IMG/VR virus record: IMGVR_UViG_3300042881_004354
Span: 1 to 39,273 of that record
Length of the DNA stretch: 39,273 nt
DNA from: a virus
Reading direction: 5' to 3' (one strand)
Positions 1,609 to 29,050 of this stretch are shown here, piece after piece; within the stretch, counting starts at the first letter, position 1; each line of letters starts with the position of its first letter. The position numbers and the translations under genes were made by a program. A model generated the notes under the pieces. It had not been told where the DNA came from, did not search any database, and saw nothing but the letters and a program-made list of their open reading frames with translations.

Positions 1609-1667
1609 TGTGTGACCCGTCTCCGCGGCATGCTGCGGGGGCGGGTTTTGTTTTGTGGGTTGCATGC

Positions 1668-4086: not shown

Positions 4087-5232
4087 ATGGCATCGCTTAC
4101 CACCCTCCCCAAGTCACCTTACTGGATAGCCCGCATGAGAGTGTGGGTTGCTGCGCCGGAAAGCCCGTCTGGCGGCTTTTGGCGACTCACCATGCGTAGC
4201 ACCAAGCTACCGCACAAAACAACCCCTAAACGCACAGCCAAGGCTTTTGCCGACGACATGGAGCGGACGGCGCGGGAGCTACGTTCGGTCAAACCGACGG
4301 CACAATGGTATGCCCATCGCGTCGATAGCCTCATGCGGCTGGCCAACATCGCCAGCCCGCGCAAGGCGGTCACTTGGACAAAGGCCGCGGAAAGTTGGGT
4401 CGAGGCCAAGACGACGGCCAAGCCCAAGACCATCGACAAATACCGCACCGACATCGCCCACTTCGCCCGCTGGCTCGGCGTGCGGGTTAGCCACGATCTG
4501 CGCGACATCACGCCCGACGACATCAGTGCCTTCTTCCGCGACCTCAAGGACAAAGGCTACTCGGATAACACGGGTGCGCTCATCATTGCCACAATCCGGT
4601 CAGTCTTCCGGCGGGCCGTCCTCCTGCGCCAGATCGACGTCAACCCTGCGGAACTACTCACCATTAGCCGTTCGGACGCGGCCAAGCGCCGGTCGTTCAC
4701 GCCCGACGAAATTGGGCGCATCCTCGCCATCGTAGACGAGGAATGGCGGGTCGCCTGCCTATTCGGACTCTATTACGGCATGCGATTGTGGGACGCCTGC
4801 AACCGATGCCACGAAGAGATCGACGGCGGCGTCTTACGCTTTGTCCCGCAAAAGAAGTCTCGCAAGGGCAAGGTAGTTGCCGTCCCCCTTATCGGGGAAC
4901 TGGCCAGCCTGCAAGGCACCGGCCCCATCACGCCGCGCCTGCACAAGCTAACGGTGTCAGTAGCCAGCGGGCAGTTCTCCCGCGTCTTGGACAAGGCTGG
5001 CATCGTCCGGTCGCGTCAGAAGGCTACCGGCAAAGGCCGCGGAGTTGTGGATGCGACCTTCCATAGCTGGCGGCATACAACCAATTCGCTACTGGTAGAC
5101 GCGGGCGTTGACCAGAAGGTGCGGCAAATGATTTGCGACCACGATACAGTCGAGATGTCCAACCGCTACACGCACGCCTCGCTGGCCACGATGAGCAAGG
5201 CGTTGGAGTCGCTGCAACAGCAGATCAAATAG
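4087..5232 (+). CDS. int: Tyrosine site-specific integrase
   Basis: A 381-aa tyrosine recombinase and the only plus-strand gene. It would recombine attP with a bacterial attB to integrate the phage. The N-terminus (KSPYWIARMRVW, then RSTKLPHKTTPKRTAKAF) looks like the arm-binding domain. A core-binding helical domain follows (about 110-200, TIDKYRTDIAHFARWL). In the catalytic domain I see Arg233 in YYGMRLWDAC, a lysine in the QKKSRKGKVVAVPL hairpin, HSWRH (His326, Arg329), His352 in CDHDTVEMS and the nucleophile Tyr361 in SNRYTHAS. All catalytic positions are present and the length is normal. No clear RBS precedes the ATG. The 3' end overlaps the convergent nuclease gene by 8 bases. No separate excisionase was recognised. 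Confidence 0.93.
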   Translation: MASLTTLPKSPYWIARMRVWVAAPESPSGGFWRLTMRSTKLPHKTTPKRTAKAFADDMERTARELRSVKPTAQWYAHRVDSLMRLANIASPRKAVTWTKAAESWVEAKTTAKPKTIDKYRTDIAHFARWLGVRVSHDLRDITPDDISAFFRDLKDKGYSDNTGALIIATIRSVFRRAVLLRQIDVNPAELLTISRSDAAKRRSFTPDEIGRILAIVDEEWRVACLFGLYYGMRLWDACNRCHEEIDGGVLRFVPQKKSRKGKVVAVPLIGELASLQGTGPITPRLHKLTVSVASGQFSRVLDKAGIVRSRQKATGKGRGVVDATFHSWRHTTNSLLVDAGVDQKVRQMICDHDTVEMSNRYTHASLATMSKALESLQQQIK

Positions 5233-9165: not shown

Positions 9166-9368
9166 TGCTCCTCGACTCCAAGCCATGCCAGCCAGAGGGT
9201 GTGTTCTGCGGTGGCCATTTCTTCAAAGGTTGGCGCTTCGGCGGGCGCTTCTTCACCTTCGACCGGCTCGTCGTTTTGTTGGCGGTGAAACGTGACAAGG
9301 CGCGTTGCCGTATCGTGGACAAACTCATACGTCGCGCTGGTTTCGTTGCTGTCGATTAGCGTCATCAT
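9162..9368 (-). CDS. Hypothetical acidic protein, 68 aa
   Basis: A 68-aa protein. Residues 1-30 are beta-like (SNETSATYEFVHDTATRLV). Residues 36-52 are strongly acidic (DEPVEGEEAPAEAPTFEEM) and the end is helical (AEHTLWLAWLGVEEQ). It is coupled by ATGA on both sides, between the tail fibre and the 49-aa gene. I recognise no family. Position suggests a fibre-linked or late accessory protein. Confidence 0.65.
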   Translation of the reverse strand: MMTLIDSNETSATYEFVHDTATRLVTFHRQQNDEPVEGEEAPAEAPTFEEMATAEHTLWLAWLGVEEQ

Positions 9369-10972
9369 GTGGCGTAGTAAGGAATCTTGCGACTGGTGCC
9401 GTTGATGGAGACGACAAGGTAACCAGCGGCCAAAGCGGGCAGCGTTGATCCGCCTGCGGTTGTCGAGGCGGTTGTCGCAGTGGTGCCGCTGCTGACGGTC
9501 AAGTCGCCTGCGATGTGGAGGCGGCTGGAGGGGGATCCGGTTCCAATGCCTGTGTTCCCATTGGACGCGATCCGCATGCGTTCGGTGTTGTTTGTCGTGA
9601 ACAGCATTGGATGGTTTGTGCTTGTTCCGGTGTATCCGGCAGCGGCGTCAACAAATGACAAAAGTGAAACCGTCCCGTTGCGAACAACCATGTCCGCTGT
9701 GGTTGTTCCGCTACTAAACACATCCAACTTTTTTGCTGGCGAACTCGTCCCAATCCCCACATTCCCGCTGGCGTCGATCCGCATGGCCTCCGTCCTAATG
9801 CCCGCGCTTGTCGTATACATTAGCGCAAGACCGCCGCTTACATATCCACTTGGCCCAAACCTCAATATATTCGACGGCCCTCCGGCATAGGCAAGGTCGC
9901 CAAAGCCCGCGTTTTGTGCGGAATACAGGAGGTTTCCATTTGTGTCAGCAACATGCAGTCGCGTCGTTGCCGAACTCGTCCCAATCCCCACATTCCCGCT
10001 GGCGTCGATGCGCATGCGTTCGGTGTTGTTTGTTAAAAACGCTACTGGATGGTTGCTATGTGTTCCGAAGTGTTCAACACCACTTATTTTGTATCCCACG
10101 AAAGAGGTGATGGTGCCATCGCTCAAATATAGCTTTGATGTTGTGACAGGGCTGCTTGTGGTTCCAATCAGCACATTCCCGCTGGCGTCGATCCGCATGC
10201 GTTCGGTGTTGTTTGTAGTAATCCGAAAATCGTTTCCAACGACGCCGATTCTATTCCCCTCATTCGTTGATGCGTCGTCTTGTAAAACAATTTCAGCGCC
10301 CGAATCGGTGCTTTCAAATCTTGCCACAAAATCTGTCGTGCCAGAATTTACATGAAGGGTTCGCGTTGGTGATGTCGTCCCGATCCCCACGCTTCCGGTA
10401 GTCACAACATTTTGGCTCCCGAAATTTGGAGCGATCTTTGTTCCGGCAATCGCCGCTGTAGGCGAAATGCTCAAATTGGTGATCGACTCCGGCGCGGCGT
10501 TGACGCCTGCGACCATGACGATGGCTCCGTTGGCATCCGTTCCAAAAAACTGGTTGGCGACGGCTGGGATGGCGGCGGACTCCGGCGCGGCGTCAGTCAG
10601 TCGCACGCATCGCGCCACAGCGCGGCCAAGCTGCTGGACGAGATACGTCAGCTTGTCGAGCGCACGTTCGTGGCTGGCCGCGGGGAAGTCGCCGCCTTCG
10701 GCGTAGGTCGTCGTCTGGGTTGCAGGCACTTCGCGGTAAATGGTGAGCGTGCTGGTCGTTGGGATGGCGACGGAAGTGCGGACAGTGCCGCCGTTGACGT
10801 TACCGGCTCCGGTATGATTGGTCAGCGTGACGACGCTCTCGACGCCCGCGGAGGTGCGGGCGATAGCCTTCAAGTGGCTGTTTTCTTGGAAAACAAACGG
10901 CACAGCATAACTCGTCGTGGTCGAGTTATTGCCTGCGTATTGGATTCGTGAAGTATCGGACTGAACGGCCAT
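9365..10972 (-). CDS. Tail fibre with T7-type N-terminal domain, 535 aa
   Basis: A 535-aa protein. Residues 1-130 match the T7 gp17-type virion-attachment domain: IQYAGNNSTTTSYAVPFVFQ, then LTIYREVPATQTTTYAEGGD and FPAASHERALDKLTYLVQQL. The shaft carries near-identical repeats of the form NNTERMRIDASGNVGIGTSS, separated by unique beta-rich stretches, ending with a small C-terminal part (PALAAGYLVVSINGTSRKIP). It attaches to the tail via the tubular proteins and should be the main receptor-binding fibre. The segments between repeats look more AT-rich than neighbouring structural genes, as often seen in host-range regions. The start at 10972 follows a perfect 12-mer core of the dispersed motif by 5 bases. 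Confidence 0.88.
   Translation of the reverse strand: MAVQSDTSRIQYAGNNSTTTSYAVPFVFQENSHLKAIARTSAGVESVVTLTNHTGAGNVNGGTVRTSVAIPTTSTLTIYREVPATQTTTYAEGGDFPAASHERALDKLTYLVQQLGRAVARCVRLTDAAPESAAIPAVANQFFGTDANGAIVMVAGVNAAPESITNLSISPTAAIAGTKIAPNFGSQNVVTTGSVGIGTTSPTRTLHVNSGTTDFVARFESTDSGAEIVLQDDASTNEGNRIGVVGNDFRITTNNTERMRIDASGNVLIGTTSSPVTTSKLYLSDGTITSFVGYKISGVEHFGTHSNHPVAFLTNNTERMRIDASGNVGIGTSSATTRLHVADTNGNLLYSAQNAGFGDLAYAGGPSNILRFGPSGYVSGGLALMYTTSAGIRTEAMRIDASGNVGIGTSSPAKKLDVFSSGTTTADMVVRNGTVSLLSFVDAAAGYTGTSTNHPMLFTTNNTERMRIASNGNTGIGTGSPSSRLHIAGDLTVSSGTTATTASTTAGGSTLPALAAGYLVVSINGTSRKIPYYAT
9557..10216 (-). repeat. Internal repeats in the tail-fibre shaft
   Basis: About 40-bp stretches encoding NNTERMRIDASGNV recur at roughly 9557-9597, 9995-10033 and 10178-10215. 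A shorter copy without NNTER lies near 9765-9787. The DNA copies are nearly identical, which is unusual for protein repeats and would allow recombination between units. They are in-frame coding repeats, not a CRISPR array. Confidence 0.8.
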
Positions 10973-11004: not shown

Positions 11005-11019
11005 GTGGCGCAATAGTTT
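11005..11019 (+). repeat. 15-bp repeat GTGGCGCAATAGTTT, copy near tail-fibre motif
   Basis: Second copy of the 15-mer at 33006-33020. It overlaps the stop codon of the giant gene by two bases and lies 12 bases from dispersed-motif copy 4. Confidence 0.5.
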
Positions 11020-14000
11020 ATTGCTCGCCGCTAAAGACGTTGTCGCCTACTTCGACGGTGTCCTTGACCAAGTTGCTGATGGCGGCGGCTCCGGCGATGG
11101 TGTTGTTGAAAAGTCCAGCGGTGGACAGGATGCGGTTGACGTCGCGGACGATGTCGCGGAACTCGGCTTCGCCTTCCAGCACTTGCGCCGGATACTCGGT
11201 CAACATGCGCTTGGCCGCTGGCACCGCGGGCGCGATGTCAAAAAGCGGGCCACTGGGCGTGTAGACTCCGAAGGCGTTGAAGATGGCGCTCTCGACGGCC
11301 TCGCCCACCACGGGGAATCCGTAGAGCGGGTCGCTGATGAGCATCGCGGCCATCCGGTTCCAGCCCCAGTTCTTCTCGTCAAAAGTCTCTTCGTCGTCGT
11401 CATCGCGGAGGTCGCGAAAGGCGTTGCGGATGATGGTGCCGACAAGCCCGTTCAAGACGAGGACGTAGAAGACCGCTTTGCCAAAATCCTTTCCGCTGCC
11501 CTTGGCTCCGGCGTAAAGGCCCAGCCCCAAGTTCTTCCGCGCCTCGCTGCTGAAGGCCCAGACGGCACGCGCCACGGGGTTAGTGCTGTTGATCTCAAAG
11601 ATCGACCGCGCACCGGCTCGCGTCGGCTGGGCGATTTCGTCCACGATGCGCTCGGTGGCCTCGCGGGCGTAGTCCGCGGCCTCCTGCCCGCCCATGCCGT
11701 TCTGGCGGGCTTGGGTCATTTGGTAGTCGTAGACGATGGCGTAGGTGCCTGCGGTAAAAAGTCCGTCAAACCCGCTGATGAGCGACCCGATCCGGCGGGC
11801 GGCTTCGCGGATGGCGTTCGGCTTTTCGGAGCGTAGCCCCTGCATGGCCAAGGCGACCGCGGGCGGCATGTCTTTGATCCGGCGCTGGATGTAGGCGCTG
11901 TCGAGCGCGGTCTTCCATCCCAAGCGACCAGACATGAGTTTGCCAAAGCGCGAGAGGTAAGCGCCCACGGGCATCTTGGCCGACGCCGCGCCAAGCTGGG
12001 TGACTTGCAAGGCCAAGGTCGAGATGCGCCCGAAAAGCGCCATCGTGGCAAAGTTGCCGGTCATCCGGTTGATCATCTGATTGATGGCCAGATGGTTCGC
12101 TGCGTCCTTGTTTCCGCCCTGCTGGAAGTATTGCAGCCAGTTGTTCATCACTGTCGCGGCCTGCTCACCGGCCTTGCCCTTGACCACGTTGCGTGTGTCG
12201 CGGTGGCCCAAGAGCGCGGAGACTTCGCCGTTGAACTCGGCGTAGGCTTTCCAGTGCGCCATCTGAAGCATGTGGCCGAAGTAGGTCTGCACCGCATCGC
12301 GGAAGACTGGCTGGGCGATGGCCCCGCCGCGGGAACGGAGGGCGCTGGGCGAGTTTGCCCCAGCGGCAAAGACGCCGCCGGTCACCGGATCGATGCCCGC
12401 CTGCTGGGGAGCGCGGATGCTTTCGACGACGAGCGGCGAGTAGAACTGGTTCTTCGGGAGGTTCAGCCCGTAGACCTTGCGGTAGACCTTGTTGATGGCC
12501 TCGTATTCCGCGTCGTATTTGTCGAGGAGGTATTGCCGGATGGCTTTGGCTTCACCGCGCAGGAGCTTCTCGGCCTTGTTGACGAAGTCTTGGTTGTAGT
12601 GCCACTTGCCCGCGGGTTGGCCGTCGCTGTCGAAGAATCCCTCCATGTGCTGGCGACCCTTCGGCTGCATCCACATCATGCTGATGGCCATGAGTTGGTT
12701 CTGGCTGTAGGAGACGCCGTCGATCTCCTCGTCCATCCGCGAGAGTTCAAAAAGCAACTGCTGCCCCTGCATCTCGCCGCCGCCCAGTTCGGAAAGAAAC
12801 GCGGCCCACTCGTCGGAAAGCGCGGCAATGTCGTCGCTCTTGGCATTGTCGGCCTTGCGCTGCCGGTCGCTGATCTGGCGGGCGATCTTGCTGTCGTTGC
12901 CAAAGACGTAGCGCAGGACTTGGTCGAAGTTGAGGAGGTTGAGCATGGCGCTCTCCCACTTCGATGGCAGGCTGTTCTCGCGCTTCAGAGCGTCTTGGCG
13001 GGCCTTGTCGTCCTCTGCGGATACTCCGGCATCCTTGGACAAATCGGTGCGGTCGTAGCCCCGCTTGGTGCGCTGGGCGATGATGCGCTGCTGCTCGCCC
13101 TTGTAGGCGCGGTTGAGGACGTCCTTGCCCATCGTGACCGCGGCGGCGCGTTGGCTGCTGTCGGCGTTGGCCCAGTCGGCAAAGAGCGGCACCATCTGCG
13201 CGGCCATCATGGCGTGGGTTTCCTCGTAGGGGTTGAGTTCGCCGTTTTCGATCCGCGCCCACTGGCCGTCGGCATACGCTTGCGCCTCCTCGGCGCTCCA
13301 CTCGGTGGCCTCCTTGAGCTTGTCGAACAGATCGTGGACGTCCGCGCCCAGCTTGCCCTTGGGTTTCTCCCCTGCCCCGCTGCGCTGCGGCTTGGCCCGC
13401 TTGAAGAGCTCGACTGCGGCGGTGTTGTATTCGTCGCGTAGGAACTTTTCCAGCGCCTCGTTGATCCGGTTGATGCGCTGGATAAAGACGTCGGCAATGG
13501 CGCGGTCGGCGCGAGTTGGGTCGAGGTTGCGCTCGGCGCGGTAACCGGCGGGAAGTTCGGTCTTCTTTTGCGCCTCGCCAATGTTCAGACCCTCGCGCAT
13601 CCACGCGGAGATGATGGCACCAGACATGCCGCGGACTTCGCTGACCTTCTGGTCGCCCTTGAATACGTCCATTGGATCGACCTTGGCCAGTTGCGTGTAG
13701 CCGCCGATCTTGCTGCGGACTTCCGGCGGCAGCACCGAAATGATGCCGTCGAGTTCGCCCAGTGCTTGCAGGATTTGCGTGCGGCGCATCTGCGCGAGGT
13801 CGCCGTCCTGCATACCGGCGAGCATGTCGCGGTTGTCGGCCATGACGCGGAGAAACTTCTCCTGCGCCTTCTCGTAGATTTTGACGCGCTCCAGAGGGTC
13901 GCGGTCGAGCCGGTTCAACGCCGCGCCGACGCGGTCGATTTCGGACTGGGTGGAGATGGAGTAACTGCGCGTGACAGATGGCGTTTCGCCATTGGCCCAG

Positions 14001-17000
14001 CGTTCCAAAAATCCATGCACGCGAGTCCACTTACCGGACTCCAACATCATGGCGGTGCCGTTGCCCAAGTCGTCTTCCAAGTCCAGATACGCGCCGTCGG
14101 CAGAAGTGACGAGGTCTTTGAGGACGCGCAACTGCGCTGACGTCGGGCGCAACCGGCTCCGCATGGAAATCGTGCCGCTGTTGCCATCGATGCGGACTGC
14201 GCCCAAGCGGAGGAAATCGGCCATGCTGCCCCACGTTTCGGTGTATTCCGGCATCCCGTCCCATTCGATCTCGCGGTGATCGATGCCGCGGCTGTCGCGT
14301 AAGTAGTCGCCTTGGCCGTCTGTCGGACGAAATGTAGCGCCATCGCGCTTGTAGCCGGACGCCTGTGAGCGGCCAGAGAAGTCGAGCATGGTGCCATCCG
14401 GCAAAACGTAGCCCGCTTCGTAAATGGAATTAGTGATGCCAAAGCGTTTCTTGGCGCTGGCAAAGATGTCTTCGGCGCTGACGCCGTTGATCGACTTGGC
14501 AACCGGCGTGTCCGGCGTGATGGCAACGTCCGCTTTGCGCTGCTCCTGCGCGGCGGCGATGGAGTAGTTAAACGACTCAAGGACAAGAGTTTGCTGTTCT
14601 GCTTTGTCGTTAGATTTGACTTTGTTGACCAGCGCGGCAATGCTGATGGCGGAGTCAAGGTCGAAGGGTGAGCCGTCTTCGGATGGCCTGCTGGCGAAAG
14701 CTGGTGGCAAACCCATGTCCCTTGGCTCCATTTTTTGTCCAAGATTGAATTCGTAAAAAACTCCTACGTTTTCATCAAAATCGTTTGGCTCTCTGACGGT
14801 GAAGTGAGAAGCGTAGATTTCGCCGTCGATAGCCACCGGAATAGCAAACCGGCGAAACTTTCTTGTTCCCTCGTAGGTTTTCTTTTTGGGGTCTGGTTCA
14901 GAAACGTCTACAGGAATTCCGTTCAAAACGATTTGTTCGGCCTCCAGCATAGGCGCAGCTTGTATGGCGGTTCTGGCCTTGGAAACAGACTCGGCTTTGC
15001 TTTCGGCAGTGAACTTAACTTCGGTGCCGGTTCGTTCGATCACCACAGACTTGCCTTGCAATGTCTCGGCAATCATCCGTCGGATGTAGTGCCGTAAGTT
15101 TTTAATGTCTGAAGGAATGTTCTCTTGCGGAAAGGTGATTTGAATCGGAGCGACAGATTTCGATGAAGGCCCGATAGAATAATTCTGCGTTTCCTGTGCC
15201 GCCTGCTCGACGCTGATCTGCTCGCCGTTGCGGGTGAGTATCTTGATCAGACTGTCGTCGAAGATGACGTAGTTGTAGGTTCCTTCTGTGCTGGATTCTG
15301 CCCGTTTTAGGTCAACTTTCAGTTTGGCAATTTTGTCCAATACGGCCTGCTTGCCGGATTCTTGTTGTTCAGCGGACAACCATTTTGCCTTATCCCATCC
15401 CTTTAATAGATTTTTCTGAATGGCAATTTCAGTTCGGATGGCGAGCGGATCTCCATTGACTCGGCTTCCTTGGTCGAGGTAGCGGATTCCCTTAATGCCT
15501 TTTTCATTGAGCATTTTGCTGATTGCGGGCGACCCAGCCTTGATAGCTCCAAAAACTTTTGGGTCTTGTTTGCGGGCATACTCATCTGCTGCAATTTCGT
15601 AAGCCTGCCTTCCTGTGTATTCCAAGGGCGCGTTGACAAACGAAAGAGCATTGCGGACGCGCTTGGACTGTTGGCTCAATGGCAAGTCCCAGTCGATCAA
15701 CTCGTCTGCCTCAACATCCAAAAGCACGTTGTAAATGCTTCCGTCAACTTTGGGATTGTCTGTTATTTCAATTTCCAGCCTGTCGCCTAATTCTTTTTTC
15801 AGCGCATTGCGTCCATCAATTTTGATCGGGCTATCTATGCCGCGAACCACAAGATCGTGTAGCTTTTCCGCGGTAGACCGCTTGAGGCTGTGCCGGATAG
15901 CCAAATCTCCCGCCAGCCAAGTGGAGATGTCGTAGCCATCCAAAAACACACGAGTCATGCGCTGCTGCTTCATAGCAGACACACCCTTGCGATATTCTTC
16001 GGCGGTCTGTATGCGCTCGGCAAAATACAGGCCATATCCGTAAACTTGCGCTCCTTCTCCTGTGCCAACTTTGCCAAGATCAAACTCATCAAACTCCGCG
16101 GGCGATCCATGCCACGCTTTGATTGAATAATTCGCAGGCCCACTAATCGTGACATCCGGCAGTGTGACGAGATTGCGTTCAACGTCGGGCTGGACGCGGG
16201 AACCGATGGAGTAGTTGTCCATCGTCTGCGCCGTCGCTGCCGCCTCGTAGCCGTAGATGGGGCGACCAGTCATAATGCGGCGCTCGACCATGTCGAATAG
16301 ATCAGACGGCGTGGTGATCTGGTTGAATCCCATCGTCTGCAAGTCCTTGATCAGCGCATCAAGGTCGGGCGCGTTTTTGCGGAACAAGTTGAAGACGCCT
16401 TTGACGCCAATGGCATTGCCGCCCTTGGATGCTTCGCGGATACGCTGCAACTCACCGGAGTATTGGTAGACCTTACTGCTGGTTTTGGCTGGCAAACCGC
16501 CCGCATCGCGCACGGCGTCGACAATATCAATGCCGCCCTCGCCTGCGGCCTCCGCGGCATCACGCTCCATCTCGGCTTGCAGTTCCTGCTCCAAGGCGAA
16601 TCGCTCGTCGTCGGTCAATCCGTCAACACCGCGTCCATCCGGCGCAACCTCCTGCGCGGTCTTTTCGCGGGAGCGGTCTACCAGTGCCTGCTGGTCAACG
16701 CCCACCGCCTCGGCCAAGAGTGCCTCAAAGTCGCGGTCGAGTTTCCCCTCGGCGCGTAGGCGGGCGAGGTTGTAGGCGCGGCGGAAGATGTCGCGGGTGA
16801 AGATGGCCAAGCGCCGGATAAAGCCGCGCAGGCCCGCGGGGATTTGCTCGTCGCGGATCTGACCGCGGAAGTAAGCCAAGGCAACGTCGGAGAACGCTTC
16901 GATGACGTCGGTGTCCGTCTCGGTGCGTAGCTGGCGATCCATCCGGTCGCTGTCGATCTGCGGCAGGATGTCGTTGAGTTGCTGACGGACGAAGTCAATG

Positions 17001-19366
17001 GTGACCCGTCCCTCGGCCATAGCCCGCTTGAGGTTGTCTTGGGCGAACTCGCGCATGACGATGGTGCCGTCCGCGCCCTCGTTGATGCGGATGATGGAGC
17101 GCCAGATGCCTTCGCGCAGTGCGCCTTGGTTGCTGCCGGTGACGGGGAAGTTGGCCAGTTCGGCGGGTTCGTTGATGTCCTGCCCGAAGGCGCGGACAGT
17201 CTCAAAGAGTCGGTCGAGGTTTTCCTGCGTCGGGTTGGCCTCGTAGTCGGTGAGCAGCGTGCGGGGTGCTTCCTCGCGGATGACCTTGGCAACGTCCTCG
17301 CCGCGCTGGCGGGCCTCGTTGACCTTCTGGATAAAGGCGACGGCTTCATTGATGCCGGTGTGGACGTCGCGCATCTCGCGCTGCACCGTCTCGCGGCGGG
17401 CGGATACCAGTGCCTGCTCGGCGGCGGTCTGGTCGGTCGTGCGGGCGAGTTCTTTGCCCTCCGGCGAGAGGACAACGTAGTCGGCCCCCTGCTTCTCCAG
17501 ACGCGGCAAGGCGGCGGGATTGGCCCTTTCGCGCAGGGCGATGGATTCGTCCACGATGCGCTGGGCGGCGGCTTTGACCAGCTTCGGGTCGCGCTTGGCG
17601 TGTTCCTCGACCAGTGCGGCTTGGGCGGCTTCGGCGCTCTCGGCTCCGGTGATGCGGTCGATCTGTTCGGGACTGTAGCCCATCTTCTCCAAGTCGGCTT
17701 TACTCTTGAGGTAGTTCTCGCCGCGGCTGATCTCGCGGTAGGACAGTGCGCCCACGCCCATGAGAGAAAGCGGAAGGAGGGCGACAAATTGCACCGCCAA
17801 TTCCCGCGGCATACCGGCGAGGCGCTCCTCCCAGTCGTAGTCGGGCATGTCGGCGTCGAGCGCCGCGGCGATGGTTTGGACAAACGGGAAGGTGGCGTTT
17901 TGCATGATCTCCTGCACGTTTTGCTCGGCCACGATTCCGGCCCCACCGATGGCGATGCGGGTGATGTTTCGCTGGTTGGGGTGTTGCAGGCGTTTGACTA
18001 AACCGCCAAAGACGGGCAGGCGTCCGGTAATCGTGTTGACCTTCATGCGCTCCAGACCGGCTTCGATGGGCGCGGAGATGGCGGCGATGAGCGCGGCCTT
18101 GTCGGGATCGATGCCGCGATATTCCAGCATGATGCGGTCGTAGTTGCTGCTAAACAGCGCGGAGGCCACGGCGGGAACGCCCGCAACCGGCACCGCGGCG
18201 GCGGCGGTGTAAGGGATGCTGCGGGCGGCTCCGTAAAGCCCCTCCTCAATCCATTCCGGCAAGAAGGTGACGGTCTGGATGGGATCGACGACGCGCTCGG
18301 CCAAGTCGCGCAATTCGCGCTCGACCATCAAAACCCCAAGGTCGGCTTGGATCTTGGCTTTGGCTTCCTCGCGTTCCTCCGGCGTGACCGGCGTTTGGCC
18401 TGCGGCGCTGAACTCGGCCCCGCCAATGCCCGCGGCGCGAAAGACCGGCTGGTTGCTTTCCAAAAGGCGAAGCTGACCGCGGAGCGTTTGCTCGCGGAAG
18501 TTGCGCGGAATGGCCTCGGTGAACGCTGCGCCACCGCGGCCAAGGGATTCGGCCAACTGATACCAAAAGCCTTTGTCGGTCTGGTTGAGTTGGGCAAAGC
18601 CTCCGGCCAGTTCGTAGATGGCTTGGCGCTGGGCGTCGGGTAGCTGGGCGAAACGTGCGGCCATTTCGCGCATGTCGGGCGCTCCGAAGCCGGTCTTTTG
18701 TCCGGTGGACTGCTGGAGGGCGTCGAAGATGAAGCGGGCCTCCGGTGCAAATTTGTCCTGCGAGGCGCGGATTTTCATGTCAAGTTCCTCGGCCTTCTCC
18801 CACAGGCGGGACTTTTCCTCGTCGTCGAACATCTCGGAGGCGGCATTGATGTCCTTGCCGACGCTTTCGACAAAAGGCGTGTCGCCGCCGGAGAGCGCGT
18901 CTTCCAAGCTGCGGCGGATGACGCCTTGCAGGATCTGATCGGCGGCGGCTTTCTTTTCGTTGCTGCGCTCAAATTGACCCTTTTGCCAGTCGAACATTTC
19001 GCGGGCGCTGGCCGTCTGCTTGCCCAACACCTTCTGGGCAAAGCCTTCCCTTTCCGCATCGAAGATCGACCGCATGTCGTCGAGCGGCACCTTGCGGGTG
19101 TCGGCCAAGTAGCCGATCATCGCTTGCCGGTAGACGTAGTCGTCGCCGTGCAGGCTGACCTTGGCTCCCTCGGTCATGCCCTTCTGCTTGGCGATGGAGT
19201 CGAAGTAGTTCTGGTCGGTAAAGACTTTGTTCCAGTGGCCCAGATCGACGTAGGGCGCGTTGTAGCCGCTGCGGCGACTCGGAGGCGCTCCGGCGCTGGG
19301 GTCGGTGTAAGTCCGCGCCTGCTGGGCTTCCTTGGACTGCGGGGTGGCGGCGAAGGAAATACTCAT
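11018..19366 (-). CDS. Giant polyvalent virion protein with ADP-ribosyltransferase-like domain, 2782 aa
   Basis: A 2,782-aa protein, likely ejected with the DNA. Approximate layout: 1-330 helical head part. 360-560 has hydrophobic stretches (PYTAAAAVPVAGVPAVASAL; ELAVQFVALLPLSLMGVGAL). About 1080-1370 is an ART-PolyVal-type ADP-ribosyltransferase domain: IKAWHGSPAEFDEFDLGKVG, YGYGLYFAE and the closing YVIFDDSLIKIL. About 1410-1540 resembles the polyvalent-associated LPD3 domain (RFAIPVAIDGEIYASHFTV). About 1640-1800 contains AGYVLPDGTMLDFSGR and RGIDHREIEWD, frequent in phage polyproteins. 1810-2780 is a long helical region with a hydrophobic FYVLVLNGLVGTII near 2640. Five (N/S)YSI motifs separate the middle domains. 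It is coupled by ATGA to the transglycosylase protein. By analogy with DarB/polyvalent proteins it may protect incoming DNA and modify host targets. Confidence 0.8.
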   Translation of the reverse strand: MSISFAATPQSKEAQQARTYTDPSAGAPPSRRSGYNAPYVDLGHWNKVFTDQNYFDSIAKQKGMTEGAKVSLHGDDYVYRQAMIGYLADTRKVPLDDMRSIFDAEREGFAQKVLGKQTASAREMFDWQKGQFERSNEKKAAADQILQGVIRRSLEDALSGGDTPFVESVGKDINAASEMFDDEEKSRLWEKAEELDMKIRASQDKFAPEARFIFDALQQSTGQKTGFGAPDMREMAARFAQLPDAQRQAIYELAGGFAQLNQTDKGFWYQLAESLGRGGAAFTEAIPRNFREQTLRGQLRLLESNQPVFRAAGIGGAEFSAAGQTPVTPEEREEAKAKIQADLGVLMVERELRDLAERVVDPIQTVTFLPEWIEEGLYGAARSIPYTAAAAVPVAGVPAVASALFSSNYDRIMLEYRGIDPDKAALIAAISAPIEAGLERMKVNTITGRLPVFGGLVKRLQHPNQRNITRIAIGGAGIVAEQNVQEIMQNATFPFVQTIAAALDADMPDYDWEERLAGMPRELAVQFVALLPLSLMGVGALSYREISRGENYLKSKADLEKMGYSPEQIDRITGAESAEAAQAALVEEHAKRDPKLVKAAAQRIVDESIALRERANPAALPRLEKQGADYVVLSPEGKELARTTDQTAAEQALVSARRETVQREMRDVHTGINEAVAFIQKVNEARQRGEDVAKVIREEAPRTLLTDYEANPTQENLDRLFETVRAFGQDINEPAELANFPVTGSNQGALREGIWRSIIRINEGADGTIVMREFAQDNLKRAMAEGRVTIDFVRQQLNDILPQIDSDRMDRQLRTETDTDVIEAFSDVALAYFRGQIRDEQIPAGLRGFIRRLAIFTRDIFRRAYNLARLRAEGKLDRDFEALLAEAVGVDQQALVDRSREKTAQEVAPDGRGVDGLTDDERFALEQELQAEMERDAAEAAGEGGIDIVDAVRDAGGLPAKTSSKVYQYSGELQRIREASKGGNAIGVKGVFNLFRKNAPDLDALIKDLQTMGFNQITTPSDLFDMVERRIMTGRPIYGYEAAATAQTMDNYSIGSRVQPDVERNLVTLPDVTISGPANYSIKAWHGSPAEFDEFDLGKVGTGEGAQVYGYGLYFAERIQTAEEYRKGVSAMKQQRMTRVFLDGYDISTWLAGDLAIRHSLKRSTAEKLHDLVVRGIDSPIKIDGRNALKKELGDRLEIEITDNPKVDGSIYNVLLDVEADELIDWDLPLSQQSKRVRNALSFVNAPLEYTGRQAYEIAADEYARKQDPKVFGAIKAGSPAISKMLNEKGIKGIRYLDQGSRVNGDPLAIRTEIAIQKNLLKGWDKAKWLSAEQQESGKQAVLDKIAKLKVDLKRAESSTEGTYNYVIFDDSLIKILTRNGEQISVEQAAQETQNYSIGPSSKSVAPIQITFPQENIPSDIKNLRHYIRRMIAETLQGKSVVIERTGTEVKFTAESKAESVSKARTAIQAAPMLEAEQIVLNGIPVDVSEPDPKKKTYEGTRKFRRFAIPVAIDGEIYASHFTVREPNDFDENVGVFYEFNLGQKMEPRDMGLPPAFASRPSEDGSPFDLDSAISIAALVNKVKSNDKAEQQTLVLESFNYSIAAAQEQRKADVAITPDTPVAKSINGVSAEDIFASAKKRFGITNSIYEAGYVLPDGTMLDFSGRSQASGYKRDGATFRPTDGQGDYLRDSRGIDHREIEWDGMPEYTETWGSMADFLRLGAVRIDGNSGTISMRSRLRPTSAQLRVLKDLVTSADGAYLDLEDDLGNGTAMMLESGKWTRVHGFLERWANGETPSVTRSYSISTQSEIDRVGAALNRLDRDPLERVKIYEKAQEKFLRVMADNRDMLAGMQDGDLAQMRRTQILQALGELDGIISVLPPEVRSKIGGYTQLAKVDPMDVFKGDQKVSEVRGMSGAIISAWMREGLNIGEAQKKTELPAGYRAERNLDPTRADRAIADVFIQRINRINEALEKFLRDEYNTAAVELFKRAKPQRSGAGEKPKGKLGADVHDLFDKLKEATEWSAEEAQAYADGQWARIENGELNPYEETHAMMAAQMVPLFADWANADSSQRAAAVTMGKDVLNRAYKGEQQRIIAQRTKRGYDRTDLSKDAGVSAEDDKARQDALKRENSLPSKWESAMLNLLNFDQVLRYVFGNDSKIARQISDRQRKADNAKSDDIAALSDEWAAFLSELGGGEMQGQQLLFELSRMDEEIDGVSYSQNQLMAISMMWMQPKGRQHMEGFFDSDGQPAGKWHYNQDFVNKAEKLLRGEAKAIRQYLLDKYDAEYEAINKVYRKVYGLNLPKNQFYSPLVVESIRAPQQAGIDPVTGGVFAAGANSPSALRSRGGAIAQPVFRDAVQTYFGHMLQMAHWKAYAEFNGEVSALLGHRDTRNVVKGKAGEQAATVMNNWLQYFQQGGNKDAANHLAINQMINRMTGNFATMALFGRISTLALQVTQLGAASAKMPVGAYLSRFGKLMSGRLGWKTALDSAYIQRRIKDMPPAVALAMQGLRSEKPNAIREAARRIGSLISGFDGLFTAGTYAIVYDYQMTQARQNGMGGQEAADYAREATERIVDEIAQPTRAGARSIFEINSTNPVARAVWAFSSEARKNLGLGLYAGAKGSGKDFGKAVFYVLVLNGLVGTIIRNAFRDLRDDDDEETFDEKNWGWNRMAAMLISDPLYGFPVVGEAVESAIFNAFGVYTPSGPLFDIAPAVPAAKRMLTEYPAQVLEGEAEFRDIVRDVNRILSTAGLFNNTIAGAAAISNLVKDTVEVGDNVFSGEQ
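17990..18004 (-). promoter_or_regulatory. Dispersed 15-bp motif, copy 5 (in coding sequence)
   Basis: Reads GGTTTAGTCAAACGC with an exact 12-mer core. It lies inside the giant gene and encodes G-L-V-K in frame (FGGLVKRLQ). Confidence 0.5.
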
Positions 19367-21618
19367 GCCATGCCAAGGGCCGCGGCTTTCTTGGACAGGC
19401 GCTCGCGCACCCAGTCCATGAAGTCTTGGTTGGTTTGAATATCAGCCAGCCACTTGTTGGCGCGGATCACGCGGGCGGCGTGGCCCTTGCCTCCGGTGGC
19501 GTCGAGCGTCTGGCGGAAGTCACCGTCGGGGTTCTTGAGGATGGCAGGCCCAGCCCCGATGCCTTGGTAATGCACAACATAAAGTTCAAAGGGGTCGGGG
19601 TCGCGGCCAAGGGCGCGGCGGGCGGCGTTGATGTTCTCCTTGGTTTTGGCTAAACCGGCGCGGATCTGGCCGTCGAGACTGCTGTCGCTGCCAAAGCGTT
19701 TGCGGTCGGCGTTGAGTAGCTGGAAGAGTCCGCGGGCCGACGAGGTGCTGATCGTCTGGTCGGGGTTGAAATTGCTTTCCTGCGCGACCAAGAGCATGAG
19801 GTGCGGCGTGTATTGGCCCAAGCCCTCGGCTTCGGCCATGCTGGCAATCTGGCCCGCGATGGGTTGCTTGGCCGGAGGGAGGTTCGACACGCTGAAATTT
19901 TCGGAGGAGGGCGCGGGCGGCATGCCTTGCACCGGAGGAAGCGGTTCGTCGGCGTCTTGCAGTCCGTCCATAGGCGACCCGCCAAAGCCGCGGAAACCCA
20001 GACCGGCGGTCATCACGTTGGGGTTGTTGGCCGTCGGGTTCATGGCGAAGTCGGCCCAAGTGGCGACGTCCATGATGGACTTCCACCATGCGTCCTCTTC
20101 TTCCGGCTTGTTCATAAACGAAGCCGCCGGATCAAGGTATGGCTCGACGATGCCCCTAAAACGATCTTGCGCCTGCTCAATGGTAAGGTCGGGGTTGTCT
20201 TTAACCATGTCGCGGATCTCGTTGATCACTTGCTGGCGCTTGGTCTGCACGTTGAGCCACGCACTGACGTCTTGTGGTTTGGTCACAGTGACATCGCCGC
20301 GCTGCTCTTTCTTCCATTTGCCCGCATCGCCAAACTGGCCCCACTCGGCCAGACTGGTGGTTTGGTTGATGAGGTTTCTGGTGATCTCGTCGGTGCGCGA
20401 TTTCTGACCTTGGTTGGCTTTCGATACCATGCCATCGAGCGTGTCCATGAAAGGCTTGCGCTGGCCCTCCGGCGCGGTCGTGACGATCTCGCTGATGAGG
20501 CGCTGGTATTCACGCTTGTGCGTGTCGGGATCAGCCATGCTGATGTCCTTCTCCGCGTTGTAGGAAAAGATTTTCTGCCAGAGGTCGCTGAACTTCGTGG
20601 CCTGCTCGGCTTGCCCTTCCGGTGTGTCGGCATACTTGAAGCCGCGGTATTCTTTCATCTTGTTGATGAGTTCCCGCGGCGCATCGATGTCGGGACGAGT
20701 GTAAAACTTTTCGATGTCTTCGTTGGTGATGGCGGCGCTCTCGGTTTCCAGACTGGTGAGCATCTGGTTGTTGAGGTCGTCGAGAAGCTGGGCGTGGGTT
20801 CCCTCGGCCATGCGCCGGAATTGCAGGACTTGTTCGGGGCGTAGCTTGTGGGGGTTCTTGCCTTCCTTCTGATACTTGGCCAGTTCGCCGCGCCACTGGG
20901 CGGGGTTTTGCTGAATGGCGCTGGTCATGGTGTTGACCTTCTGCTCCTCCTCAAATTTCAAAATTTTCGCGTCGGCTTCTTCTTTGCTAAACACCCCAGC
21001 CTGCGCCCCGCGCTGGTAATAGGCCATGCCGTCTTCAATGCGTCCTTCGTTAAAGGCGCGCTGCGCGCCGTTTTCAATGCTCTGGCGGTAGTTGTTGACC
21101 CGCTGCACCGCGGCCTTGCCCCGCACCTCGGCAGCGGTCTTGACGCGCAGGGTGTTAATTGACTGCTCCAGCTTGCTGGAAGAAAGCGGGCTGCTCATGC
21201 GGAGACTGGCCCCGCGCTCGGCCAGTTGATTGTCATACTTTTGCCAGACGTTCTCCCACTGGTCGGCGGGCTTGGTCAAAACTTCTTCCTCAAAGCGCGA
21301 GACAACGTCGGTCTTGATGGCGTCGAGTTCGGCCATTTGCGCCTCGTCGTGGGCGCGGCCCAAGCGCACGGCAAAATCGCCCAGCGCGTTGGAGGCCCGC
21401 ATTCCCGCGCCGCCCAGAATTTCCATGCCCGCGCCTGTGCCTCCGGTGTCAAAAGCGGCTTCGGGCAGCGGCTGCGGTTGCAGCATGCTCATGCCTTGGG
21501 CGACAAGTTGACCGGCCCCGCGCAGGCTGGGCGTGCGAATGGACGACGGATCGGTCAGCACCGCGGAGTTGCCGGTCTGCGGAGCGTTGGGAATTTGGGC
21601 TACGGGGATGTTGGCCAT
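19363..21618 (-). CDS. Internal virion protein with C-terminal lytic transglycosylase, 751 aa
   Basis: A 751-aa protein. The first 550 residues are mostly helical and charged, typical of podovirus ejection proteins (T7 gp15/gp16-like in role, not clearly homologous). At about 590-730 is an SLT-type lytic transglycosylase: LMLLVAQESNFNPDQ (catalytic Glu in QES), STSSARGLFQLLNADRKRFG and FELYVVHYQGIGAGPAIL. It would locally cut peptidoglycan as the DNA enters. I chose the ATG at 21618 (MANIPVAQIPN), 4 bases after the previous gene; a longer frame would overlap that gene. The end overlaps the giant gene by ATGA, and the two products probably act together in ejection. Confidence 0.85.
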   Translation of the reverse strand: MANIPVAQIPNAPQTGNSAVLTDPSSIRTPSLRGAGQLVAQGMSMLQPQPLPEAAFDTGGTGAGMEILGGAGMRASNALGDFAVRLGRAHDEAQMAELDAIKTDVVSRFEEEVLTKPADQWENVWQKYDNQLAERGASLRMSSPLSSSKLEQSINTLRVKTAAEVRGKAAVQRVNNYRQSIENGAQRAFNEGRIEDGMAYYQRGAQAGVFSKEEADAKILKFEEEQKVNTMTSAIQQNPAQWRGELAKYQKEGKNPHKLRPEQVLQFRRMAEGTHAQLLDDLNNQMLTSLETESAAITNEDIEKFYTRPDIDAPRELINKMKEYRGFKYADTPEGQAEQATKFSDLWQKIFSYNAEKDISMADPDTHKREYQRLISEIVTTAPEGQRKPFMDTLDGMVSKANQGQKSRTDEITRNLINQTTSLAEWGQFGDAGKWKKEQRGDVTVTKPQDVSAWLNVQTKRQQVINEIRDMVKDNPDLTIEQAQDRFRGIVEPYLDPAASFMNKPEEEDAWWKSIMDVATWADFAMNPTANNPNVMTAGLGFRGFGGSPMDGLQDADEPLPPVQGMPPAPSSENFSVSNLPPAKQPIAGQIASMAEAEGLGQYTPHLMLLVAQESNFNPDQTISTSSARGLFQLLNADRKRFGSDSSLDGQIRAGLAKTKENINAARRALGRDPDPFELYVVHYQGIGAGPAILKNPDGDFRQTLDATGGKGHAARVIRANKWLADIQTNQDFMDWVRERLSKKAAALGMA
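19642..19656 (-). promoter_or_regulatory. Dispersed 15-bp motif, copy 6 (variant, in coding sequence)
   Basis: Reads GGTTTAGCCAAAACC, one mismatch from consensus with both arms intact. It lies in the transglycosylase domain, encoding G-L-A-K-T in frame. Confidence 0.45.
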
Positions 21619-21622
21619 AAAA

Positions 21623-22375
21623 TTATCCGGCGCGGTAGACTCCGTAGTTAAAGCCCATGTTGGCCACGTTGCCCGCGCCTTCCAGAAGCGATCCGTAGGA
21701 TCCCATGCGAAGCGCATTGGCCTTGTTGTATCCGGCCATGCGCTCGCCTGCGGCGGTGTTCATGGCCAAGGAGTAACCCTGCTTGGCCGCGCTTTTCTGG
21801 AAGTTGGCCGCTTCCATTTCGTATTGCGCGGCGGTCTTGTCCAAGATGCTGAATCCGGCTTGAAAGCGTTCCATCGCTCCTTTGCGGAAGTAGGCGGTGC
21901 GCTCCAAGTTGGCTTTGTAAAGTTCGTCGGCTACGCCCAGTTCCAAGAGGCCCGCGGTTTCGGCCATGACGGCCAAGGGCGAACCGGCGCTGGTCACGCC
22001 GCTTTTGGCGTAGCGGGCGCGTTGCGCTCCCATGAGGCGGCTGTTTTCGTCGCGCATGCGGGAGGCGCGTTCCCTCGCCTCCTGCTCCACGCGCAGCGCC
22101 TGCTGCTCGTATTGGGCGGCGTTGGAAAACTGCGCGTCAAACTGCATCTGTGCCGCTTGGGACTGCAACATGGCCTGCCGGTTGGCCAGTTCGGCTTGGT
22201 ATTGCGCGGCTTGAACTTGAATCTGGGCCTGCTGCTGGGCCACGCGGTAGTTGTAGTCCGACATGCGTTGCGCCGCGGCAGCTTGCTGCTGCTGGCCGTA
22301 ATATTGCATGCCCGCGCTGACCGCCGTGGTGGCGATGGCGACTCCGGCCAAAACGGTTGCGGTAACTCCGGCCAT
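21623..22375 (-). CDS. Internal virion protein (gp14-like in role), 250 aa
   Basis: A 250-aa protein. The N-terminus (VTATVLAGVAIATTAVSAG, residues 4-22) is a hydrophobic Ala/Gly-rich helix. A long Q/A-rich helix follows (MSDYNYRVAQQQAQIQVQAA), then RYAKSGVTSAGSPLAVM, a signature of podovirus internal virion/ejection proteins (RARYAxSGVxxxGSPLxVM). The C-terminal part is helical with a Gly-rich end. By position between the tail tubular proteins and the transglycosylase it should be the small ejection protein that forms the first part of the trans-envelope channel. Confidence 0.82.
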   Translation of the reverse strand: MAGVTATVLAGVAIATTAVSAGMQYYGQQQQAAAAQRMSDYNYRVAQQQAQIQVQAAQYQAELANRQAMLQSQAAQMQFDAQFSNAAQYEQQALRVEQEARERASRMRDENSRLMGAQRARYAKSGVTSAGSPLAVMAETAGLLELGVADELYKANLERTAYFRKGAMERFQAGFSILDKTAAQYEMEAANFQKSAAKQGYSLAMNTAAGERMAGYNKANALRMGSYGSLLEGAGNVANMGFNYGVYRAG

Positions 22376-27987: not shown

Positions 27988-28238
27988 TTGAGTCGGTAAT
28001 GAGGGATGGGTCGGGTGACGCTGCCGGAAGTTATCCGGAACGTCTTGCGCTCGCACCGGCCCTCGGCCACGGCGCGGCAGAGCATGGCACCCACCGTGGG
28101 GGTGGCCTTGCCCAGCTTGGCCGCTATTTCCTTGGGGGTGAGCCAGCCCTCCGGCACCTCGTCCACTTGCTTGGGCGTGGCCAAGGCCGCGGCCCACGCG
28201 GCGGCGGCAATTTGCTCGGCGGTCAGCGGCCTTTTCAC
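27984..28238 (-). CDS. Winged-helix DNA-binding protein, 84 aa
   Basis: An 84-aa protein from a GTG start. Residues 1-25 are an Ala-rich helix. Residues 30-60 (PEGWLTPKEIAAKLGKATPT followed by VGAMLCRAVAEGRCERKTF) form a clear helix-turn-helix and the beginning of a wing, as in MarR/phage regulatory winged helices. The GTG overlaps the phosphoesterase stop (GTGA). It sits just upstream of the repeat-rich capsid control region, with only two genes between, so it is a candidate regulator of late genes and one candidate for binding the dispersed motif. That link is inference. Confidence 0.7.
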   Translation of the reverse strand: MKRPLTAEQIAAAAWAAALATPKQVDEVPEGWLTPKEIAAKLGKATPTVGAMLCRAVAEGRCERKTFRITSGSVTRPIPHYRLK

Positions 28239-29050
28239 AGATCTGCAACCTCCGGTGCGGGCGGGTTGAAATGCAGATTGTGGACATTGGGCAGTGCGCC
28301 CTCCGGCTGGTTGCGCCAGTCCAGCACCATCATGCTGGGACGCGGGATCGCATCCGGCACCACCTTGTGGGCGTGCCTTGTCAGAAACTGCCATCCGCCG
28401 GTAATGCCCAGCATGGACGCCCCGTCGCTAAACCATCCGCCGCAATGGCGGTGGGCGCGAAGAAAGACCTTGGCGGGTTCGTGACCGGCACGAAGCGAGT
28501 TGAGGCGGGCGTTGCCCATCGCAATCGACATGGCGGTGGCCTCCAAGTAGGCGCGGCTGGTCACGCCAATGTGGTGGGTGGCGTCTACCAGTGTGCCATG
28601 AATACGGAACAGCCACTTCTCGCGGGCCACACCGTCCTTGGCTCCGATCAAGCGGGCCAGATACGATTCAATCTCGTGGGTGTGGCACTCGGTGCCTTTG
28701 ACCACCAGCGTCTGCGCGGCGGCTTGGGACAAGAGGCGCAGGGATTCCGCGGCCATCTTGCAGTGCAGTTCGATCAAGGTGGCGACGACCTCCGGCGACT
28801 TGTGGTGGATGCCCTCGGTGGCATCGCCGTTGCAAAGCAGCACAAAAGGATCGCTGCCCACAATCTCCGACACTTGGGCCTGTGCCTCCTGCCACTTTTC
28901 CCAGAGCCACGCTTGGTGGAGGTTTTTGCCGAAGCCGATGGTGTTGCCGTTGATGCTTTCGCTATCCGGCGGCATCAACCCTACGCTCGACCCGCAATGC
29001 AGATCGCTGACGACGACCAGCAACTGCGGGCGTGATGGTTTTTTAGACAT
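28235..29050 (-). CDS. Calcineurin-like metallophosphoesterase, 271 aa
   Basis: A 271-aa protein with the metallophosphoesterase motif order: SDLHCGS (Asp16, His18), LLCNGDATEG (NGD), a GNH-like KGTECHTHE where Asn is replaced by Thr, DATHHIG and a final VFLRAHRHCGG. Two metal ions would be held by these residues. The substrate cannot be read. Phage enzymes of this type include nucleases, cyclic-nucleotide or cyclic-oligonucleotide phosphodiesterases and end-processing enzymes. It lies between scaffold and capsid modules, an unusual place, so a counter-defence role is possible but unproven. The changed GNH motif deserves attention. Confidence 0.8.
   Translation of the reverse strand: MSKKPSRPQLLVVVSDLHCGSSVGLMPPDSESINGNTIGFGKNLHQAWLWEKWQEAQAQVSEIVGSDPFVLLCNGDATEGIHHKSPEVVATLIELHCKMAAESLRLLSQAAAQTLVVKGTECHTHEIESYLARLIGAKDGVAREKWLFRIHGTLVDATHHIGVTSRAYLEATAMSIAMGNARLNSLRAGHEPAKVFLRAHRHCGGWFSDGASMLGITGGWQFLTRHAHKVVPDAIPRPSMMVLDWRNQPEGALPNVHNLHFNPPAPEVADL

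What the first reader, a model, noticed from the sequence alone, without database searches (positions are those of the whole stretch)
11018..19366. 2,782-residue virion polyvalent protein with ADP-ribosyltransferase-like domain
The protein is over 8 kb of the genome. It has an ART-PolyVal-type domain (AWHGSPxxFDxFD, then YGYGLYFAE), an LPD3-like domain, a recurrent GYVLPDGTMLDFSGR domain and long helical parts. Polyvalent proteins are known from phages and conjugative elements as carriers of anti-defence and host-modifying domains delivered with the DNA. In this phage it directly follows a transglycosylase ejection protein. An ejected ADP-ribosyltransferase could act before any phage gene is expressed.
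Basis: partly seen in the sequence, partly recalled or inferred. Interest (0 to 1): 0.6.

Follow-up and report, generated by a model that had tools for sequence, protein, structure and literature searches.

The report
Ejected phage protein with swappable cargo
A huge phage protein, probably injected into bacteria together with the viral DNA, carries an ADP-ribosyltransferase-type enzyme as one of several interchangeable 'cargo' pieces, and related phages swap these pieces exactly at a recurring four-amino-acid joint (NYSI).

Summary
The ORF is real: 2,782 codons at 11018-19366, on the minus strand. It belongs to a temperate-type T7-like podovirus and lies directly behind an SLT ejection-protein gene. 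The ART domain (residues 1079-1394) is supported. It has invariant H1086 and Y1114, a mostly conserved D1370, a confident alignment-based model and matches to predicted ART-PolyVal phage proteins. LPD3 is firm. Activity and virion presence are untested.

In about 37 related contigs the N-terminal (1-909) and C-terminal (1801-2782) parts are homologous scaffolds, while residues ~910-1800 are a cargo slot. The slot holds different modules (at least 22 families) in different combinations: three ART types, PBECR/MuF-C RNases, GNAT, ParB-like, LPD3 and unknowns. Nearly every cargo joint is (N/S)YSI. In 23 proteins the motif occurs 84 times in 18,051 cargo residues and never in 43,080 scaffold residues. 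Homology between phages switches on or off exactly at it. Codons vary synonymously, so selection acts on the peptide. A distant sister lineage does the same with xFSIS (20 versus 0).

This is a new variant of polyvalent proteins: a multi-slot, tetrapeptide-delimited cargo cassette. What reads the tetrapeptide is unknown; no protease was found. I found no description in the papers searched.

The parts
11018..19366 (-). Giant polyvalent (probable third ejection) protein, 2,782 aa; residue r is encoded at 19366-3(r-1) downwards
16640..19366 (-). N-terminal scaffold, residues 1-909, homologous in all relatives (24-98% identity); ends at ..QEVAP
16217..16639 (-). Pre-cargo piece, residues 910-1050, shared with only some relatives (L004, L005, L018, L063, L065)
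16205..16216 (-). Joint 1: NYSI, residues 1051-1054 (AAC TAC TCC ATC)
16133..16216 (-). Short piece between joints 1 and 2, residues 1051-1078
16121..16132 (-). Joint 2: NYSI, residues 1079-1082 (AAT TAT TCA ATC)
15185..16132 (-). ART module, residues 1079-1394; in this family a close copy was found only in L002/L032, with more distant ones in L053, L046 and L065
16109..16111 (-). H1086, predicted catalytic His (invariant 49/49)
16025..16027 (-). Y1114, predicted catalytic Tyr (invariant 49/49)
15257..15259 (-). D1370, candidate third residue of the H-Y-D set (D in 34/49; next residue D/E in 41/49)
   Evidence: HYD configuration from PMC5512222
15173..15184 (-). Joint 3: NYSI, residues 1395-1398 (AAT TAT TCT ATC)
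14570..15184 (-). LPD3 module, residues 1395-1599 (Pfam LPD3 at 1420-1527, E 4e-15); also in L163 in another context
14558..14569 (-). Joint 4: NYSI, residues 1600-1603 (AAC TAC TCC ATC)
13967..14569 (-). 'GYVLPDGTMLDFSG' module (M2), residues 1600-1800, no Pfam family; the last module before the C scaffold in all six family members that have it; also in other phages flanked by xFSI
13955..13966 (-). Joint 5: SYSI, residues 1801-1804 (AGT TAC TCC ATC)
11021..13966 (-). C-terminal scaffold, residues 1801-2782, homologous in relatives (27-100% identity)
19363..21717 (-). Upstream SLT transglycosylase ejection-type protein, 784 aa, conserved next to the giant gene in relatives
21623..22375 (-). 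T7 gp14-like internal virion protein (phrog_418)
9365..10972 (-). Downstream tail fibre gene

Best explanation
The ORF encodes the largest ejection (internal virion) protein of a temperate-type T7-like podovirus. It has two fixed scaffold halves, residues 1-909 and 1801-2782. Between them is a cargo slot of roughly 600-900 residues, filled with one to four effector modules (usually two or three) strung like beads. In this phage the modules are ART (1079-1394), LPD3 (1395-1599) and a GYVLPDG module (1600-1800). The modules are exchanged between related phages by recombination, and the exchange points coincide with a selected linker tetrapeptide, (N/S)YSI, that sits at each cargo joint. The joint lets modules be joined in frame to one another and to the scaffolds. 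Presumably the whole chain is packaged, enters the host with the DNA, and the ART modifies host (or defence) proteins before phage genes are expressed, as T4 Alt does. SHOWN here: ORF, gene order, scaffold homology, combinatorial module exchange, coincidence of exchange points with the tetrapeptide, peptide-level constraint, and ART family membership with its conserved residues. INFERRED: packaging and ejection, enzymatic activity, target, and any role of YSI beyond being a tolerated linker.
For: Relatives with 80-98% identical scaffolds can have no cargo match at all, e.g. L006, L007 and L011. Sixty-four modules fall into 22 families in many orders, e.g. M8-M1-M2, M12-M1-M2, M8-M1-M11, M0-M1-M11, M0-M1-M13, M18-M1-M13, M0-M10, M0-M4. 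In 23 complete proteins [NSD][YF]S[IV] occurs 84 times in 18,051 cargo residues and 0 times in 43,080 scaffold residues. Not counting the C-scaffold joint there are 61 in cargo against 1.5 in shuffles (maximum 6). NYSI has 32 distinct contexts against 6 for the next 4-mer that does not overlap it. In 152 and 188 pairwise comparisons identity drops from ~1.0 to ~0.1 directly after the motif, or rises directly at it. Breakpoints found without reference to the motif lie within 3 aa of it in 33% of cases, against 2.6% at random. Sixteen different 12-mers encode it, with both TCN and AGC serine codons. The divergent contig L163 has NYSI at all five joints. A distant sister lineage uses xFSIS: 20 in cargo, 0 in 20,331 scaffold residues. 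Module domains are effector types: ART-PolyVal, PBECR1, PBECR5, MuF_C, GNAT, ParB-like. Gene order gp14-like, SLT, giant, fibre resembles phage vir555.
Against: No proteomics: presence in the virion is unproven. The ART Pfam hit for the single sequence is below the gathering score, and the model matches no solved ART. Some relatives have few or no NYSI joints (L018/L064 have a different cargo joint style; L063, L065 and L046 use NYSV/NFSI/HYSV variants). All data are metagenomic contigs; no cultured relative of the scaffolds was found among 50,697 phage records, and a genome-contig scan with the C scaffold found none.
Confidence: 0.75

Rival explanations
1. The tetrapeptide is a processing site: the giant protein is a polyprotein cut at each YSI by a protease, in the virion or in the host, releasing separate effectors.
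For: Peptide-level conservation with free codons; occurrence only at cargo joints and the C-scaffold joint. All joints of a lineage tend to share one variant (NYSI or xFSIS), which suggests something that reads them in trans. In the ART model the joints fall in or next to low-confidence, probably flexible ends. Proteolysis of polyvalent proteins is established for phage P1 DdrB (PMC5512222).
Against: No protease was recognised in the window. The 29073-29942 product carries a weak phrog_458 'protease' label but reads as a scaffold-like protein with no PDB relative. This protein has no HExxH zincin motif. The motif does not resemble known prohead protease sites (from general knowledge).
Confidence: 0.3
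2. The tetrapeptide is only a recombination relic: microhomology of the 12-base sequence, used by a RecT-type annealing system, makes swaps happen there, and the peptide has no function.
For: AACTACTCCATC is the commonest 12-mer (23 of 67 distinct contexts). The phage has RecT and PDDEXK (RecE-like) genes at 883-1758 and 74-886.
Against: Sixteen different 12-mers occur, including both serine codon families. P0001's own five joints use four different 12-mers. The N-scaffold joint stays AATTATTCGATT while partners carry AACTACTCCATC, so homology is imperfect. The sister lineage keeps FSIS instead.
Confidence: 0.25
3. The joint is a structural or mechanical element, e.g. a folding or unfolding boundary or a docking tag that lets each module be threaded through the tail and refold.
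For: Present once per module, at its N-terminal edge; low model confidence around joints. A related NFSV stands just before the SLT domain of the neighbouring ejection protein.
Against: No direct evidence; a four-residue signal is short for this.
Confidence: 0.3
4. Ordinary polyvalent protein: nothing special beyond known domain mosaicism, and the ART is a standard ART-PolyVal domain.
For: Polyvalent proteins with ART, LPD and PBECR domains near virion genes are described (PMC5512222).
Against: The strict tetrapeptide at the joints and its match to the exchange points are not explained by generic mosaicism. They are not mentioned in that paper: its text has no 'linker', 'interdomain' or 'shuffl'.
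Confidence: 0.15

Closest known systems
Polyvalent proteins (Iyer et al. 2017, PMC5512222)
   Same: Very large multidomain phage protein with ART, LPD and PBECR-type domains, encoded among late virion genes, predicted to enter with the DNA
   Different: Cargo confined between two conserved scaffolds; recurring tetrapeptide at the joints; no zincin peptidase in this protein; combinatorial exchange between close relatives shown at residue resolution
ART-PolyVal (PF18760), Tox-ART-HYD2 clade
   Same: H in strand 1 motif (WHGS), Y in GLYF, D/E after NYVIF; model matches predicted members
   Different: Single-sequence score below the Pfam cutoff; long inserts; exchangeable module
Bacteriophage T4 Alt
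   Same: Works-like model: an ART that enters with the DNA and modifies host proteins at once (PMC5512222)
   Different: Different ART clade (R-S-E) and a dedicated protein, not a module; no homology claimed
Polymorphic toxins, including MuF toxins of temperate phages (PMC5576092, PMC3482391; abstracts only)
   Same: Fixed delivery part plus exchangeable toxin-type domains; MuF_C/PBECR modules also occur here
   Different: Exchange is internal and in several slots, not one C-terminal toxin; no MuF delivery part recognised; no immunity gene noticed next to it (not searched for)
T7-like ejection proteins (gp14/15/16) and N4 virion RNA polymerase
   Same: Position after gp14-like and lytic transglycosylase genes; giant protein of ejection type
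   Different: No sequence match to gp15/gp16 or vRNAP found; carries effector cargo
vir555 (BK063671) and Rhodobacteraceae phage LS06-2018-MD07 (OP947163)
   Same: vir555: same gene order with a giant ART-carrying protein between ejection genes and fibre. LS06: giant protein with ART and GYVLPDG domains
   Different: Scaffolds not recognisably related by tblastn; other joints (LFQ-like in LS06); both keep HExxH

Membership tests
Polyvalent proteins | Two or more domains of disparate activity in one polypeptide | tested here: met
   ART + LPD3; in relatives GNAT, PBECR, MuF_C, ParB-like
Polyvalent proteins | Encoded among late/virion genes | tested here: met
   Between SLT ejection gene and tail fibre
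Polyvalent proteins | Delivered into the host with the DNA | not testable with these tools
   Needs virion proteomics or an injection assay
ART-PolyVal / HYD ARTs | Pfam gathering score reached | tested here: not met
   19.8 bits against 31.2 for the window protein; a relative's ART module reaches 69 bits
ART-PolyVal / HYD ARTs | H-Y-D active-site residues | tested here: met
   H1086 49/49, Y1114 49/49, D1370 34/49
ART-PolyVal / HYD ARTs | ART fold | tested here: inconclusive
   Model pLDDT 78.6; 24 viral models at E<1e-3, several named ART-PolyVal; no solved structure at E<1e-3
ART-PolyVal / HYD ARTs | NAD-dependent ADP-ribosyl transfer | not testable with these tools
   Biochemical assay needed
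LPD3 (PF18798) | Pfam gathering score | tested here: met
   56.3 bits against 27
Polymorphic toxins (MuF type) | Variable toxin at the extreme C terminus behind a conserved N-terminal delivery part | tested here: not met
   Variable part is internal; C-terminal 982 residues conserved
Polymorphic toxins (MuF type) | Cognate immunity gene next to it | not tested
   Tail fibre follows directly; immunity genes were not specifically searched for
T7-like ejection proteins | Present inside the virion and ejected | not testable with these tools
   Gene order only
T4 Alt family | R-S-E catalytic set | tested here: not met
   H-Y-D type residues instead

The most novel reading that the evidence does not exclude
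(N/S)YSI, and xFSIS in the sister lineage, is a signal read in trans, most likely a cleavage or assembly signal. It turns the ejection protein into a modular delivery polyprotein in which effectors lying between two such tetrapeptides are packaged, injected and released, and phages diversify by shuffling effectors at it.
Probability: 0.3. Interest if true: 0.85.

Novelty: new variant of a known kind. Interest (0 to 1): 0.64.

Why it matters
It shows where and how phages exchange the effectors they probably inject: an internal slot with standard four-residue joints, at residue resolution. That makes an old question directly testable, namely which host functions are attacked in the first minutes of infection: each inter-joint module is a delimited unit that can be cloned and assayed. 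If the joint is a delivery or release signal, the system would be a natural bead-on-string carrier of phage proteins into bacteria. The catalogue of about 22 modules includes several with no known domain, which are candidates for new counter-defence or host-takeover activities.

Tried and rejected
1) Single-sequence AlphaFold of the ART: useless (pLDDT 43); replaced by a 49-sequence alignment. 2) Alignment of the whole cargo 1079-1800 for one model: rows from genome ARTs were misplaced onto the last module, so it was not folded; LPD3 and the GYVLPDG module therefore have no model. 3) General rule that all polyvalent proteins carry a recurring joint peptide: tested on 74 ORFs (72 of them from the 80 ART loci in bacterial genomes); enrichment of xFQ or FSI was no better than a control tripeptide (1.48 against 1.46), so not claimed. 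Only close FSI-type relatives showed it, and the sister lineage clearly. 4) Phage protease: the only candidate (29073-29942) looks like a scaffold protein. 5) Zincin autoprocessing: no HExxH in the window protein. 6) Relatives in bacterial genomes through the C scaffold: none. 7) PADLOC and NCBIfam: nothing usable. 8) Literature for the motif: no phage paper with NYSI or with joint peptides of polyvalent proteins in the held library. The sister lineage is not independent: its scaffolds are distant homologues.
Full report
WHAT WAS CHECKED. The window is a 39,273-base virus record from IMG/VR. All quoted motifs are present. LPD3 is a firm Pfam hit (4e-15). ART-PolyVal is a weak one for the single sequence (0.0015, below the gathering score).

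SURROUNDINGS. The late genes run on the minus strand in T7-like order: terminase (phrog_2), portal/head-tail adaptor (phrog_332), major head protein (phrog_3437), tail proteins (phrog_394, phrog_376), a gp14-like internal virion protein (phrog_418), an SLT transglycosylase protein, the giant protein, and a tail fibre. The SLT gene overlaps the giant gene by four bases. The same order (internal virion protein, middle-sized protein, giant ART-carrying protein, fibre) is annotated in vir555. This is the basis for calling it an ejection protein; virion presence was not tested. An integrase gene (4087-5232, plus strand), RecT and a PDDEXK (DUF3799) protein are present, so the phage is of temperate type.

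THE ART DOMAIN. Aligning the domain with IMG/VR relatives and ART loci from bacterial genomes gives H1086 and Y1114 in 49/49 sequences, and D at 1370 in 34/49 with D/E at 1371 in 41/49. Iyer et al. describe an H-Y-D set for polyvalent-protein ARTs (PMC5512222). The alignment-based AlphaFold model of 1044-1410 is good (pLDDT 78.6, pTM 0.68). It matches 24 predicted viral structures at E<1e-3, several named ART-PolyVal, but no solved structure at E<1e-3. So family membership is well supported, the ART fold is likely, and activity is untested.

THE MAIN FINDING: A CARGO SLOT WITH STANDARD JOINTS. Scans of IMG/VR with the whole protein and with its two ends gave about 37 non-redundant sequences, some of them partial. 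Close relatives keep residues 1-909 and 1801-2782 (often 80-98% identical), while the middle may have no detectable match at all, e.g. L006, L007, L011 and L012; L010 and L016 combine a close N scaffold with a 44-45% identical C scaffold. Their neighbouring SLT gene stays 59-84% identical. The N scaffold ends sharply at QEVAP. Within this protein the tetrapeptide NYSI stands at 1051, 1079, 1395 and 1600, and SYSI at 1801. In most relatives the cargo pieces are likewise bounded by it. Cutting at the motif gives 64 modules that cluster into 22 families and appear in many orders. Pfam names for modules: ART-PolyVal (M0, M19; M5 is the window's ART), LPD3 (M9), PBECR1-like, PBECR5, MuF_C, GNAT, ParB-like, DUF7178; several have none.

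STATISTICS. In 23 proteins with both scaffolds, [NSD][YF]S[IV] occurs 84 times in 18,051 cargo residues and never in 43,080 scaffold residues. Not counting the C-scaffold joint, 61 remain in cargo, against 1.5 (maximum 6) in shuffles. NYSI is the top tetrapeptide with 32 distinct contexts; the next 4-mer that does not overlap it has 6. Comparing joints pairwise, with the same module upstream and different ones downstream (152 pairs), identity is about 1.0 up to the I of the motif, 0.47 at the next residue and about 0.1 after. In the mirror case (188 pairs) it rises at the Y. These pairs share ancestry and are not independent events. Because those comparisons start from the motif, breakpoints were also taken from local alignments without using it: 33% lie within 3 residues of a motif against 2.6% at random. 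A new divergent contig, L163, found with the LPD3 module, has NYSI at all five joints.

PEPTIDE OR DNA? The 67 distinct joint contexts use 16 different 12-base sequences, with both TCN and AGC serine codons. The window's own five joints use four different 12-mers. The amino acids are therefore what is kept. One 12-mer (AACTACTCCATC) is still the commonest, so some homogenisation by recombination is likely too, and the phage has its own RecT.

SISTER LINEAGE. The GYVLPDG module also occurs in other phages, flanked there by xFSI instead of NYSI. Scans with the ends of one of these (L256) gave a second family whose scaffolds are distant homologues of the first (hhalign E 3e-88 and 9e-37, 19-23% identity). 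There FSIS marks most joints: 20 in 3,577 cargo residues, 0 in 20,331 scaffold residues, and the homology breaks again coincide with it. That a lineage tends to share one variant at its joints, and that the same module type bears the variant of its own lineage, suggests that something reads the joint in trans. This is inference.

WHAT IT DOES. Best reading: an ejection protein with interchangeable injected effectors. The ART is this phage's protein-modifying effector and would act like T4 Alt at the very start of infection. For the joint, three options remain open: processing site, structural/folding boundary, or recombination relic under weak constraint. No protease was identified, and this protein lacks the HExxH motif seen in vir555 and LS06, which counts against simple self-processing.

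NOVELTY. Polyvalent proteins, ART-PolyVal domains, MuF toxins and phage mosaicism are known. I found no description of a tetrapeptide-delimited multi-slot cargo in the library searched; most subscription-journal papers and bioRxiv preprints are not covered. I rate it a new variant of a known kind.

Noticed in passing
window 19888-19899 (-), residues 607-610 of the SLT protein: NFSV, a variant of the joint motif, stands about 30 residues before the SLT catalytic domain; kept in relatives that share this SLT variant.
   Followed up: partly
L031 (OP947163), giant protein of phage LS06: A different short string, [LM]FQ, recurs at domain edges (PLFQ, ILFQ before the ART, MFQ, ILFQ, LLFQ); by eye only, it was not the top tripeptide in the automatic test.
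   Followed up: partly
L079 (Helicobacter prophage BK070148) giant protein: PNSTT[KN]-like strings recur between its domains, another possible lineage-specific joint.
   Followed up: no
all family members: Modules seem to prefer slots: the GYVLPDG module is always last before the C scaffold, M1 second, M8/M12/M18 first; total cargo stays within about 580-920 residues.
   Followed up: no
window 28235-29050 (-): 271-aa ORF in the head gene block with SDLHCG and NGD motifs that look like a metallophosphoesterase (by eye; no Pfam hit at E<0.01).
   Followed up: no
window 35239-36012 (-): 257-aa ORF with a Fringe-like glycosyltransferase Pfam hit (1.4e-6) next to the terminase genes.
   Followed up: no
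window 4087-5232 (+), 883-1758 (-), 74-886 (-): Integrase on the opposite strand, RecT and a PDDEXK (DUF3799) protein: temperate-type phage with a RecE/RecT-like pair.
   Followed up: no
window 29073-29942 (-): Protein labelled protease by weak phrog_458 similarity and present in vir555 (phrog_3742) looks like a scaffolding protein; the label may mislead.
   Followed up: partly
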